NCBI RefSeq assembly: GCF_000412695.1
Contig: NC_021499.1
Coordinates: 5,146,001-5,210,000 of the forward strand
Reading direction: 5' to 3'
DNA: 64,000 nt
From: Pseudomonas resinovorans NBRC 106553
GTDB lineage: Bacteria; Pseudomonadota; Gammaproteobacteria; Pseudomonadales; Pseudomonadaceae
Positions 38,813 to 42,457 of the stretch are shown here, piece after piece. Position numbers and translations under genes: made by a program. The notes under the pieces are model-generated. The model ran no database searches and was not told the origin of the DNA. It was given only the letters and a program-made list of their open reading frames with translations. Positions within the stretch are counted from its first letter, which is position 1. Each line of letters opens with the position of its first letter.

Positions 38813-39037
38813 TCATTCCTGGCCTCGTAGTCCCTGGGAAAGGCCGAACATGACCAGCAACAGGTTCTGGTCCGGCTGGATCTGCGCTTTCAGCCGCGCA
38901 TTGGGCGGCAGGGGGCAGTAACCCAGGCCATTGACGCTAACCACAGAGGGTGAAGGCTCATGCCAGGCAGCCGCTGCGAGGGAGGCCACCCCCAGTGCAC
39001 CGACGAGAAACAAAGCTCGCGTTACTTCTAACTTCAT
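38813..39037 (-). CDS. Small exported hypothetical protein (ColR-locus)
   Basis: A 74-residue protein with a likely signal peptide (RALFLVGALGVASLAAAAW, about 7-25). The mature part is short and has one cysteine (GYCPLPPNARLKAQI). It starts inside the inaA stop codon (ATGA overlap) and is last in the operon. In P. aeruginosa a similar small gene (PA4377 as I recall) takes this position. A role in outer-membrane integrity is suggested only by its operon. Confidence 0.78.
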   Translation of the reverse strand: MKLEVTRALFLVGALGVASLAAAAWHEPSPSVVSVNGLGYCPLPPNARLKAQIQPDQNLLLVMFGLSQGLRGQE

Positions 39038-39735
39038 GATCGCAACCCCTTGATAGCGCTGCCAAACGCTGCTTCATAACCGTAGATCAGACACTTCCAA
39101 TCCGCCTCACTCAGCGACGAGTGGCGCCTAAACTGCCACAGGTCGCGCCTCGCCGCCCGTTTGCTCGACAGCCGGTGCCGGGCTTTTTCCAGGTCGAGCA
39201 GGGCTATTTCAGGCAGGCCGCCCTCCCCTTTCGGGCGCACGAAAACGTGTTTGGCGTAGAGACAACCGTGCTGCCAGCCACCCTGGTGCAGGCGGCAGAG
39301 GGTAACGGCCAATTGTTGCAAAACGAGGTGCCTGGCCCGTTCGTCGGGCTGCGAGGCGTACCAGCTGCCGAACTCGATGAAGCCTTCCAGCGCCTCGGTC
39401 ACCAGCAGCGCCTGCCAGCCGTTGCCGGGGCGATGGCTGGCGCCACCATAGACCAGATGTGGTACCCGTACGCCCAGGCCTTCGATGGCGAGCAGGGCGT
39501 CCCGTTCGCGCAGCGCGGTGGGTCGGCCGAAGGGATGGCGCAGGCTGCGGTAGAGGTGCCCGACCTGGCGTTTGAGATACAGCTGCCGACCGTCCATCAG
39601 TTGGACCCTTTGCACACCGCTCACACCACCACGGCGACGATTGGGCGCCTCCACCCAGTCGCCCCGCAGCGACCAGAAACGGCGGAATTCCTCGTCCGCC
39701 CGGGGCTCGACCGAACCCAGCCAATCAACGGCCAT
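39034..39735 (-). CDS. inaA: InaA / lipopolysaccharide-kinase-like protein
   Basis: A 233-residue protein of the Kdo/WaaP-like lipopolysaccharide kinase family. Kinase-like features include YLKRQVGHLYRSLRHPFGRPTALRE in the N-lobe, HGCLYAKHVFV (the HGD-like catalytic-loop region) and LLDLEKARHRL (the DFG-like aspartate). The ATG at 39735 overlaps the methyltransferase gene by 11 bp, so it is translationally coupled. inaA is weak-acid inducible in E. coli and is a ColRS target in pseudomonads. Kinase activity has not been established for this family member. Confidence 0.87.
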   Translation of the reverse strand: MAVDWLGSVEPRADEEFRRFWSLRGDWVEAPNRRRGGVSGVQRVQLMDGRQLYLKRQVGHLYRSLRHPFGRPTALRERDALLAIEGLGVRVPHLVYGGASHRPGNGWQALLVTEALEGFIEFGSWYASQPDERARHLVLQQLAVTLCRLHQGGWQHGCLYAKHVFVRPKGEGGLPEIALLDLEKARHRLSSKRAARRDLWQFRRHSSLSEADWKCLIYGYEAAFGSAIKGLRS

Positions 39736-40420
39736 GGCCTGGCACCTTGCGCAGCACGTAGACCCGCCACATCGCATAGAACGGCAGGAAGTCCAGGTGC
39801 TCCTGGATCTCGAAACCGGCCTCGCGGAACTCCGCCTCGACGGTGGCCACCGGCAGCACGAAGCGGTTCTGGTAGCCCTGCTCCTTGCGCCGTGCCTGAC
39901 GCCGGTTTTCCAGGCGCTGGCGGCGCCAGGCCTTGAAGTTGCCATCGACCCAGAGGGAAACGATCAGGCTGTCGCGGGTGACCCGGTGACACTCGCGCAG
40001 CAGCGTCAGGCGGTTGGCGGGCTCGCCGATGTGGTGCAGCAGGCGCATGCAGAAGATGCTGTCCACCGCGTTCTCGGGCAGTTGGATGGAGAAGGCCGAG
40101 GTCTGCAGCAGGCGCACCCGCCTGACCACTTCCGGCGGTTGGAACTCGGCGGCCACCCGCAGCATCTGCTCGGAGTTGTCTGCGCCGATGATCACCCGGT
40201 TCGGTTTCTCGGCCAGCAGCGGCCAGAAACGGCCGGCGCCGCACGGCAGGTCCAGTACCAGGCCTGGCTCGTCGGCCAGCGCCAGGGCACGCCGCGCCAG
40301 CTGCAGGTCGCGCCAGTTGGACAAGCGCCGCGACAGGCCGGCCTGGTGTTTGCGGAAGTAGGCTTCGGCGTGCTGGCGGTCGTATTTGTCGGAGAATTCG
40401 AGATTGATCGGGCGGGTCAT
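39725..40420 (-). CDS. Class I SAM-dependent methyltransferase
   Basis: A 231-residue methyltransferase. Motif I is LVLDLPCGAGRFWPLL (about 54-69), followed by GADNSEQML (motif II) and SIFCMRLLHHIGEP (post-II region). The substrate is not evident. It is the first gene of a leftward operon with inaA and a small exported protein, 80 bp downstream of colS. A ColR-like box sits at the colS 3' end, within this gap. In P. putida the corresponding genes next to colRS belong to the ColR regulon and support membrane integrity. Confidence 0.87.
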   Translation of the reverse strand: MTRPINLEFSDKYDRQHAEAYFRKHQAGLSRRLSNWRDLQLARRALALADEPGLVLDLPCGAGRFWPLLAEKPNRVIIGADNSEQMLRVAAEFQPPEVVRRVRLLQTSAFSIQLPENAVDSIFCMRLLHHIGEPANRLTLLRECHRVTRDSLIVSLWVDGNFKAWRRQRLENRRQARRKEQGYQNRFVLPVATVEAEFREAGFEIQEHLDFLPFYAMWRVYVLRKVPGHGR

Positions 40421-40490
40421 GGACCACCTCCGGATTGAAGATGGTCATTAAATTAACCAGCGCCTGGTCAAGAAGTGGTCAAGTTCAGGT

Positions 40491-40504
40491 GAAAAAAACG
40501 TCAA
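40491..40504 (-). promoter_or_regulatory. Candidate ColR-binding site
   Basis: Read leftward the sequence is TTGACGTTTTTTTC. It fits at every defined position the ColR motif as I recall it from P. putida, (T/C)(T/C)NA(C/G)NN(T/C)TTTTT(C/G). It overlaps the last codon of colS and lies 71-84 bp before the methyltransferase-inaA operon. Confidence 0.65.
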
Positions 40505-41784
40505 GCCCCCGGTCGGCCCTTCAGCAGCACTTCGAAGCGACAACCGGTGGGCTCCACCGCACTCAAGCCAACCTTCCAGCCCTGGTTGTCACAGATCCGC
40601 TGTACCAGCGAAAGCCCGAGCCCCAGGCCATCACCGCGCCTGGCCGGCCCACGGACGAAGGGCCGGAACATGGCTTCGCGGTCCTCTTCGGGAATGCCCA
40701 CGCCGCTGTCCTGCACCACGAAGCCCTGGTCCGTGAGCACCAGGCGAATGCTGCCGCTGTCGGTGTAGTGCAGGGCGTTGCGCAGCAGGTTGCCCAACAC
40801 CGAACGCAGGAAGGAGGCATTGTAACGCTGCTCCTGGCGTGGGCCGGGCTGGTACTCGAAATGCAGCCCCTTGCGCTCGATGGCATCGCGCCACTAGCTG
40901 GCAAGCTCGTCGGCCACACTGCTGAGGCTCGCCTGGGGCGCCGCGCTGACCTCTTCGTGCTGGGAACGCGCGAGGAACAGGAAGGTCTGCACCAGGTCGC
41001 GCATCTCTTCGGTGGCACGGGCCATGCGCTGCACCTGGGCACGGCCACGGGCGTCGAGGCCGGGGTTCTCCACCAGCAGTTCGCAGGAGCTGGCCAGGAC
41101 CATCAGCGGCGTACGCAACTCATGGCTGACGTCGCTGGTGAACAGTCGCTCGCGATGGAGCACCTCGTGCAAACGACCCAGCGTGTCATCGAAGGCCAGG
41201 GCCAGTTGCCCGACCTCATCGGAGGCGTAGTCCGGCGCCAGCGGTGGCGCCATGCCCAGCAGCTGGTCGCGGTGGCGTACCTGGCCGGCCAGGCGAACCA
41301 CCGGTTCTATCACCTTGCGCGCCAGGACCCAGCCCAACAGCAGGGCCAGGACCACGCTGAGCCCGAAGCCCACCATCACCACCCGATAGAGGACCTGTTC
41401 GCGGGCCTCGAACTCGCTCTGGTCCTGCAGCATCACATAACGACGGCCGTCCACCTCGCGCACCAGCGCGTGATAGGAGCTCTCGCCCTCGAATACCTCG
41501 TGGAAACCCAGCGCCAGATTCGCCAGGTTGGCCGGTATGGCATGGCCGGCGGGCCCCTCGCTGCTGTAGAAGCGGGTGTCGCTGTCCAGGCTCGGCGGCC
41601 GGCCCTGGGCGATGTTCTGGGTGAGCACGCGGTTGAGTTCGTTGTTCAGGTCACGGGAGATCAACTGCTCTTCGATCAGGTGCACCACCGCGATGATGCC
41701 CACGGCGAAGGCGCCCGCCACCAGGGTGGTCATCAGCACGAAGGCGATGAGGATCCGTCGTGCCAGGCTCTGCTTAAACTCCAT
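40501..41784 (-). pseudogene. colS: Sensor kinase colS interrupted by one in-frame amber codon
   Basis: The two halves lie in the same frame and are separated only by TAG at 40894-40896. Codons 1-296 encode TM1, a short periplasmic sensor, TM2, a HAMP region and the HisKA H-box (SDVSHELRTPLMVL). After the amber codon the frame continues WRDAIERKGLHFEYQPG, then the HATPase N-box (LGNLLRNALHYTDSG), G1 (DSGVGIPE) and G2 (GDGLGLGLSLV), to a normal stop at 40501. Full length would be 427 residues. The product truncated at the amber codon lacks the ATP-binding domain and cannot phosphorylate ColR. It could be a real null allele, a sequencing error or a suppressed amber. The start overlaps colR by 11 bp. 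Confidence 0.9.
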
Positions 41785-42457
41785 CGGCGGACTCCGCCAG
41801 GCGATAGCCCAGCCCGTGCAGGGTATGCAGCAACGGCTTGGCGAAGGGTTTGTCGATCACCTGGCGCAACTGGTGGATGTGGCTGCGCAGGCTGTCGCTG
41901 TCGGGGCAGTCGTCGCCCCACAAGGCCTCTTCCAGCGCCTCGCGACGCACCAGGTGGGGACTCTTCTGCATCAGCACGGCGAGCAGCTTGAGGCCAATGG
42001 GGTTGAGCTTGAGCGACTTGCCACCCCGGCTGACTTCCAGGGTGTCCAGGTCATAGCTGAGATCGGCCACCTGCAGGCTGCGCTTGCCGCCGCCCTGGGA
42101 GCGACGCAGAACCGCCTCGATGCGGGCGGCGAGTTCGGACAGGGCGAAGGGTTTGAGCAGGTAGTCGTCGGCGCCGGACTTGAAGCCCTGCAGACGATCG
42201 TCCAGGGCATCGCGGGCGGTGAGCATGATCACCGGGGTATCGCGCCGCGCCTCTTCGCGCAGGCGCCGGCACAGGTTGTAGCCATCCAGCCCCGGCAACA
42301 TGATGTCCAGCACGATCAGGTCGAAATGCTCGCTGCTGGCGAGATGCAGGCCGGACAGGCCGTCCCGTGCGCAATCGACGCTGTAGCCCTTGAGTTCGAG
42401 GAAATCGACCATGTTGGCCAGGATGTCGTTGTTGTCTTCGACCAGCAGGATGCGCAT
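41774..42457 (-). CDS. colR: Response regulator ColR (OmpR family)
   Basis: A 227-residue two-component regulator with an N-terminal receiver (MRILLVEDNNDILANMV; phospho-acceptor aspartate in LIVLDIMLPGLDG near residue 51; conserved K in DYLLKPF) and a C-terminal OmpR-type winged helix (SLRSHIHQLRQVIDKPFAKP). I start at 42457, where GGAG is eight bases upstream; a 7-codon longer start exists. It overlaps colS by 11 bp. ColRS controls envelope and LPS genes and responds to zinc/iron in P. putida. No fault is seen in ColR itself. Confidence 0.94.
   Translation of the reverse strand: MRILLVEDNNDILANMVDFLELKGYSVDCARDGLSGLHLASSEHFDLIVLDIMLPGLDGYNLCRRLREEARRDTPVIMLTARDALDDRLQGFKSGADDYLLKPFALSELAARIEAVLRRSQGGGKRSLQVADLSYDLDTLEVSRGGKSLKLNPIGLKLLAVLMQKSPHLVRREALEEALWGDDCPDSDSLRSHIHQLRQVIDKPFAKPLLHTLHGLGYRLAESADGV

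What the first reader, a model, noticed from the sequence alone, without database searches (positions are those of the whole stretch)
40894..40896. A single amber codon splits colS into a sensor half and an ATPase half
Seen in the sequence: reading frame, spacing and overlap with colR are intact, but TAG interrupts the frame after 'DELAS'. The following sequence resumes in the same frame with normal ColS content. The truncated product keeps the H-box but loses the N, G1 and G2 ATP-binding boxes. If real, ColR in this strain works without its kinase, or through cross-talk, which is striking because the ColR target box next door is preserved. Alternatives are a base-call error or amber suppression.
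Basis: partly seen in the sequence, partly recalled or inferred. Interest (0 to 1): 0.72.

Follow-up and report, generated by a model that had tools for sequence, protein, structure and literature searches.

The report
Recent stop codon disables sensor kinase
A carbazole-eating bacterium carries what looks like a recent single-codon break in the gene for a metal-stress sensor, leaving the partner regulator without its normal switch; this is an ordinary kind of gene damage, made more interesting because the bacterium also lacks the spare sensor that many relatives keep.

Summary
Confirmed: an in-frame TAG at 40894-40896 (minus strand) ends colS after residue 296. The first part keeps the metal-sensing segment and the histidine-bearing HisKA domain; HATPase_c lies behind the stop. 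The window is the chromosome of Metapseudomonas (Pseudomonas) resinovorans CA10/NBRC 106553. All 17 other genus genomes held here have an uninterrupted colS. None of CA10's 70 tRNA genes has anticodon CUA, and the RNA behind the stop folds no better than chance. The ATPase part is as constrained as in relatives, and colS is the only clear mid-gene stop among 269 ORFs compared with a relative. Best reading: a recent strain-level nonsense mutation that uncouples ColR from ColS. A consensus error remains possible, because no reads are held. New here: CA10 also lacks the spare kinase ColS2 but keeps a second ColR-type regulator beside eptA, so neither regulator has an intact ColS-type partner. The preserved ColR box is unremarkable: it overlaps colS's own terminator and lies behind colS in 12 of 13 genomes. 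Ordinary in kind, moderately interesting.

The parts
40894..40896 (-). in-frame TAG that ends colS after codon 296
   Evidence: no stop in 17 of 17 genus relatives
40897..41784 (-). colS, translated part: 296 aa with periplasmic sensor (ExxE at residues 126-129), weak HAMP match and HisKA with His221
   Evidence: 73-90% identical in 17 genus relatives
40501..40893 (-). colS, part behind the stop: 130 codons with HATPase_c, then the normal TGA
   Evidence: still constrained
41774..42457 (-). colR, OmpR-family response regulator, intact, overlapping the start of colS
   Evidence: 93-97% identical in the 13 genus relatives searched
40489..40504 (-). ColR-box match TTGACGTTTTTTTCAC, overlapping the terminator of colS, about 70 bp before the methyltransferase gene
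   Evidence: 0 in 100 shuffles of the window; consensus from PMC2689224 passages
39725..40420 (-). methyltransferase gene in the position of PP0903, the ColR-activated gene of P. putida
   Evidence: Pfam Methyltransf_25/11; position as in PMC2689224 passages
39034..39735 (-). lipopolysaccharide kinase (Kdo/WaaP; InaA-like) gene in the position of PP0904
   Evidence: Pfam PF06293, E=1.5e-54

Best explanation
The sequenced strain CA10 carries a recent, strain-level nonsense mutation in colS (natural, or acquired in culture). Shown: the stop, the domain split, uninterrupted copies in 17 of 17 genus relatives, no CUA tRNA, and no loss of constraint behind the stop. Inferred: translation ends at residue 296 and gives a membrane protein that still has the metal-sensing segment and the DHp helices but cannot bind ATP, so it cannot autophosphorylate or switch ColR on. 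It is either degraded or left as a weak phosphatase for ColR~P. ColR targets, including the methyltransferase/LPS-kinase operon next door, then sit at basal level and no longer respond to zinc or iron. Because CA10 also lacks ColS2, its second ColR-type regulator (beside eptA) is left without an intact ColS-type kinase too.
For: In-frame TAG with both pieces otherwise normal. 17 of 17 other genus genomes show no stop; only CA10 has a TAG. 70 tRNA places, 70 ARAGORN genes, none with anticodon CUA (the paper also reports 70). ATPase part: mean pN/pS of CA10 against 12 relatives 0.194, among those 12 0.180; sensor part 0.189 against 0.166. One private residue in 126 columns, on a tip branch of 0.099 substitutions per site. 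This fits a stop younger than a small part of that branch. Isolated event: colS is the only clear mid-gene stop in 269 ORFs. Function: P. putida colS mutants lose the metal response of ColR targets and tolerate less zinc and iron (MIC 5 to 2 mM and 5 to 1.25 mM; PMC4074579 passages). DHp alone suffices for phosphatase activity in NtrB and EnvZ (PMC3510030 passages).
Against: No reads, no second strain of the species and no expression data were available, so neither the base nor the phenotype is proven. Full conservation behind the stop is equally what an error or efficient read-through would give; the test cannot tell these apart. P. putida colS mutants pay a clear cost under metal and phenol stress, so fixation in a wild aromatic degrader would be surprising. 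The phosphatase role of the truncated protein is analogy only.
Confidence: 0.72

Rival explanations
1. Consensus (base-call or manual-editing) error in the finished genome; the strain has an intact colS.
For: The ATPase part is fully conserved and carries no second lesion, and all 17 relatives are uninterrupted.
Against: 18x GS FLX plus 75x HiSeq, with ambiguities inspected and corrected with Illumina reads. The usual 454 error is a homopolymer indel (recalled), whereas here the frame is exactly kept.
Confidence: 0.15
2. The stop is real, but another kinase has taken over ColR, as RisK did for RisA in Bordetella pertussis after risS broke, so ColR signalling persists under a new input.
For: Direct precedent (PMC5020355 passages). 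CA10 has 45 HisKA matches. ColR and its box are intact.
Against: No close ColS paralogue in CA10: the next matches to the sensor part are 30-32% identical over about half its length, and ColS2 is absent. The best HisKA stretch among 29 other loci compared (of 44) is 23/59 identical. In P. putida, loss of colS abolishes the metal response, so no ready donor shows itself there.
Confidence: 0.08
3. The TAG is read through at useful rates (suppressor tRNA, near-cognate decoding or programmed recoding), giving some full-length ColS.
For: Constraint behind the stop is undiminished.
Against: No CUA tRNA among 70. TAG ends 42 of 318 predicted genes in the sampled stretch, so it is a normal stop. No unusual structure in the 60 nt behind it (z=-0.01). 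No relative keeps a stop there.
Confidence: 0.04
4. Two-piece kinase: the ATPase part is made separately and acts in trans.
For: An in-frame GTG exists at 40800 (99 aa ORF).
Against: That start lies inside the domain, just before the N box, and I saw no Shine-Dalgarno-like sequence before it (by eye). The TAGTG overlap at the stop restarts in another frame (87 aa ORF).
Confidence: 0.01

Closest known systems
ColR-ColS two-component system of Pseudomonas (P. putida)
   Same: Gene order, colR/colS overlap, ColR box, downstream methyltransferase/InaA-like operon, ExxE motif and domain content
   Different: In CA10 the kinase ends before its ATPase domain, and the spare ColS2 present in 9 of the 17 other genomes of the genus is missing
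RisA/RisS of Bordetella pertussis
   Same: Intact OmpR-family regulator beside a kinase gene broken in one lineage and not in a relative (PMC5020355 passages)
   Different: risS is a pseudogene in all isolates examined (frameshift) and RisK replaces it; in CA10 one strain is known, the break is recent and no replacement is evident
DHp domains of EnvZ and NtrB expressed alone
   Same: Truncated ColS keeps the HisKA helices with an HExxT-type motif (motif recalled) but no ATPase domain
   Different: Phosphatase activity was measured for those (reported in PMC3510030 passages); here it is inferred only

Membership tests
ColS orthologue (ColRS system) | gene directly after colR, overlapping it, with ColR box and methyltransferase operon behind | tested here: met
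ColS orthologue (ColRS system) | periplasmic ExxE metal-sensing motif | tested here: met
   FEARE at residues 125-129 by my count of the translation; motif from PMC4074579 passages
ColS orthologue (ColRS system) | HisKA and HATPase_c in one polypeptide | tested here: not met
   separated by the TAG; so not a working ColS kinase as the sequence stands
Recent nonsense pseudogene | intact orthologues in close relatives, same gene order | tested here: met
   17 of 17 for colS; colR found beside it in the 17 loci aligned
Recent nonsense pseudogene | no further decay behind the stop | tested here: met
Recent nonsense pseudogene | stop present in independent reads of the strain | not testable with these tools
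   no reads held; no second strain of the species seen among the protein hits listed
Amber recoding or programmed read-through | cognate CUA tRNA | tested here: not met
   none among 70 tRNA genes
Amber recoding or programmed read-through | stop conserved across relatives, or a structure behind it | tested here: not met
RisA-like regulator with replaced kinase | another kinase phosphorylates the regulator | not testable with these tools
   no close paralogue found (partial comparison of HisKA stretches); needs biochemistry

The most novel reading that the evidence does not exclude
CA10 is a naturally ColS-free pseudomonad. Both of its ColR-type regulators (one with the truncated kinase, one beside eptA whose ColS2 is gone) run without any intact ColS-type kinase, held off by a phosphatase-only ColS stub or fed by unrelated kinases. 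[quoted passage not shown] putida (PMC2865465 passages) and pCAR1.3 carries Tn3-family transposases, one with a TnpC-type regulator annotated under the match on pCAR1. I did not test whether that transposon is of the Tn4652 kind.
Probability: 0.08. Interest if true: 0.6.

Novelty: new member of a known kind. Interest (0 to 1): 0.33.

Why it matters
CA10 is the original host of the carbazole plasmid pCAR1. If its ColRS system is off, its tolerance of metals and aromatic compounds and its envelope state may differ from other Pseudomonas hosts for a simple genetic reason, and comparisons between hosts should allow for it. It would also be a natural test of what two related response regulators do when both have lost their ColS-type kinases.

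Tried and rejected
Recoding was rejected: no CUA tRNA, TAG a normal stop (42 of 318 predicted genes), no structure. A reading of general decay or poor assembly was rejected. Of 17 ORFs flagged with a stop in CA10 (of 269 with a match of at least 60%), only colS was kept. One (B_64) was shown to be the 5' leader of an ORF whose start I had placed too far upstream. One (B_48) was an antisense shadow of an intact ABC-transporter-like frame (by eye). The other 14 were set aside by position alone (first 76 or last 3 residues), not one by one; some of these leaders are well conserved. One further ORF gave a split match and two gave short matches; these three were not followed up. 58 of 327 ORFs had no such match and were not examined. 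In the reverse comparison 10 of 262 were flagged: nine within the first 95 residues, one at residue 196 of 347 that looks like the leader of a PAS-type gene (by eye) and is also the one split match there; one short match was not followed up.

Genome-wide ColR-box counting led nowhere: 66 exact matches in 13 genomes against 52 for the backward control pattern. Only the recurring box behind colS (12 of 13 genomes; not G015) and those at the colS2/eptA locus mean anything. Three of CA10's seven matches are copies inside a tandem phage-like repeat. The plasmid search with the ATPase piece gave 290 records, all under 60% identity. Paper searches gave the RisA and DHp precedents but nothing on CA10 ColS. 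No paper in the library holds both 'resinovorans' and 'ColS' as whole words.

Full report
What was checked. The minus strand of 40894-40896 reads TAG in the frame that starts at the ATG 41784. The product is 296 aa and ends in DELAS; the same frame then continues for 130 codons to a TGA at 40501-40503. Pfam places HisKA in the first piece (residues 213-276) and HATPase_c in the second. HAMP scores under its curated cut-off. colR ends at 41774, so the overlap with colS is intact.

Where it is. The window lies on a 6,285,863-base contig beside a 198,965-base one. These are exactly the sizes of the chromosome and pCAR1.3 of Pseudomonas resinovorans CA10 = NBRC 106553 (PMC3735057, whole text read), now Metapseudomonas resinovorans in the NCBI taxonomy: a carbazole degrader from activated sludge, sequenced with 18x GS FLX and 75x HiSeq.

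Relatives. The held genus has 18 genomes, CA10 included. All have the colS locus; 17 of 17 others show no stop and CA10 alone has one TAG. In all 17 the two pieces align in one frame with exactly one codon between them. A search of about 5.8 billion proteins with the sensor part (7999 candidates scored, best 120 listed) gave CA10's own 296-aa product as a single-member cluster, and next a 90%-identical, 429-aa protein of TCU-HL1. No second strain of this species was therefore available, and polymorphism could not be tested.

Age. If the ATPase part had been free of selection along CA10's branch it should have gathered amino-acid changes. It has not: mean pN/pS of CA10 against 12 relatives is 0.194, against 0.180 among those relatives; sensor part 0.189 against 0.166; colR 0.068 against 0.074. 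CA10 has one private residue in 126 columns of the ATPase part; the 12 others have 0 to 8. The tip branch is 0.099 substitutions per site (several inner nodes of that tree are poorly supported). By a rough estimate of mine, about 65 amino-acid-changing substitutions would be expected in about 282 nonsynonymous sites over a wholly unconstrained branch, and the excess seen is about two. The stop is therefore recent, or is read through, or is an error.

Read-through. All 70 tRNA places of CA10 (the paper also counts 70) were read by ARAGORN; a recount gives 70 genes with 38 anticodons and no CUA. TAG ends 42 of 318 predicted genes of a 400-kb stretch. The 60 nt behind the stop fold no better than shuffles (z=-0.01). 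The in-frame GTG at 40800 is far inside the domain, and the TAGTG restart leads into another frame.

Is the genome generally broken? ORFs of TCU-HL1 were compared with 400 kb of CA10: 269 of 327 had a match of at least 60% identity and 17 of these showed a stop. One is colS, at residue 297 of 429. One is a leader artefact, one an antisense shadow, and 14 lie at ORF ends and were set aside by position. One split and two short matches were not followed up. The break looks isolated; the stretch was chosen because it holds colS.

The ColR box. TTGACGTTTTTTTCAC at 40489-40504 fits the published consensus (PMC2689224 passages); no shuffle of the window held a match. It overlaps colS's own TGA. An exact box lies behind colS in 12 of 13 genomes examined, including relatives where the methyltransferase/LPS-kinase operon is not in the predicted gene list (JM0905a and G011) or is reduced to a remnant (BN417). 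Its survival therefore says little about whether the system still works. Across the genomes the exact pattern is hardly above its backward control (66 against 52 in 13 genomes), though in CA10 alone it is 7 against 0, three of the seven in a phage-like repeat.

A second regulator and a missing spare kinase. A ColS-like paralogue (ColS2, 50-56% identical to CA10's sensor part) is present in 9 of the 18 genomes, not in CA10. A ColR-like paralogue (74-77%) is present in 10 of the 14 genomes searched, CA10 included (the G016 match holds a TAA). In TCU-HL1 and BN417, ColS2 lies between eptA and a gene with a weak strictosidine-synthase-like match; in CA10, JM0905a and G007 it is missing there. In G007 and CA10 a box is still in place between these two genes. 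In CA10 eptA, that gene, a PAP2 gene and the second colR lie together, whereas in JM0905a, G007 and BN417 about 6.7 kb separates the PAP2 and colR genes from the others. Five of the 10 genomes with the second ColR lack ColS2 (CA10, G008, G003, G014, G007). In four of them ColS itself is the only ColS-type partner, which suggests that ColS may serve both regulators; that is inference. By these searches CA10 is the only one of the 18 genomes with no intact ColS-type kinase. Among its 45 HisKA matches the colS frame is the shortest (320 aa; next 394). In the 30 of 45 loci that I compared (29 besides colS), the best other stretch is 23/59 identical, against 50 identical residues for ColS2 of TCU-HL1.

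Likely effect. P. putida without ColS loses the metal response of ColR targets and tolerates less zinc and iron (PMC4074579 passages), and both colR and colS mutants fail on phenol plates that the wild type tolerates (PMC2865465 passages). In P. aeruginosa eptA responds to zinc through ColRS, without raising colistin resistance (PMC9952513 passages). The CA10 stub keeps the sensor, His221 and an HExxT-type motif; for EnvZ and NtrB the DHp domain alone is reported to be a sufficient if weaker phosphatase (PMC3510030 passages). I therefore expect ColR to be unphosphorylated and metal-deaf in CA10. A replaced kinase, as with RisK in B. pertussis (PMC5020355 passages), is possible but has no candidate.

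Verdict. A real feature of the public sequence, most likely a recent nonsense mutation in one strain: ordinary in kind, with a consensus error as main rival. The loss of both ColS-type kinases with both regulators kept is the part worth following.

Noticed in passing
L237 (G000:C1:3160001-3180000): Tandem array of a 6,970-base unit, 100% identical between copies from about 3,162,000 to the end of the stretch (two full copies and a third begun), with a Zot-like ATPase frame by eye: looks like a filamentous prophage array.
   Followed up: partly
L003 (BN417), L239 (JM0905a), L240 (G011), behind colS: The methyltransferase/LPS-kinase operon in the place of the ColR-regulated PP0903 operon, intact in CA10, is missing or a remnant in these relatives while the ColR box stays.
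   Followed up: partly
L233:5355-9600 (G000:C1:3535355-3539600): eptA, a strictosidine-synthase-like gene, a PAP2 gene and a second colR in a compact cluster without ColS2 and without the 6.7 kb found there in three relatives.
   Followed up: partly
G016:C2:1563713-1564393: The second colR-type gene of this relative shows a TAA within the match, so a ColR paralogue may be decaying there.
   Followed up: no
L238 (G000:C2:172001-192000): Two different Tn3-family transposase genes on pCAR1.3 (936 and 1004 aa ORFs); on pCAR1 a TnpC-type regulator is annotated under the match to the second.
   Followed up: partly
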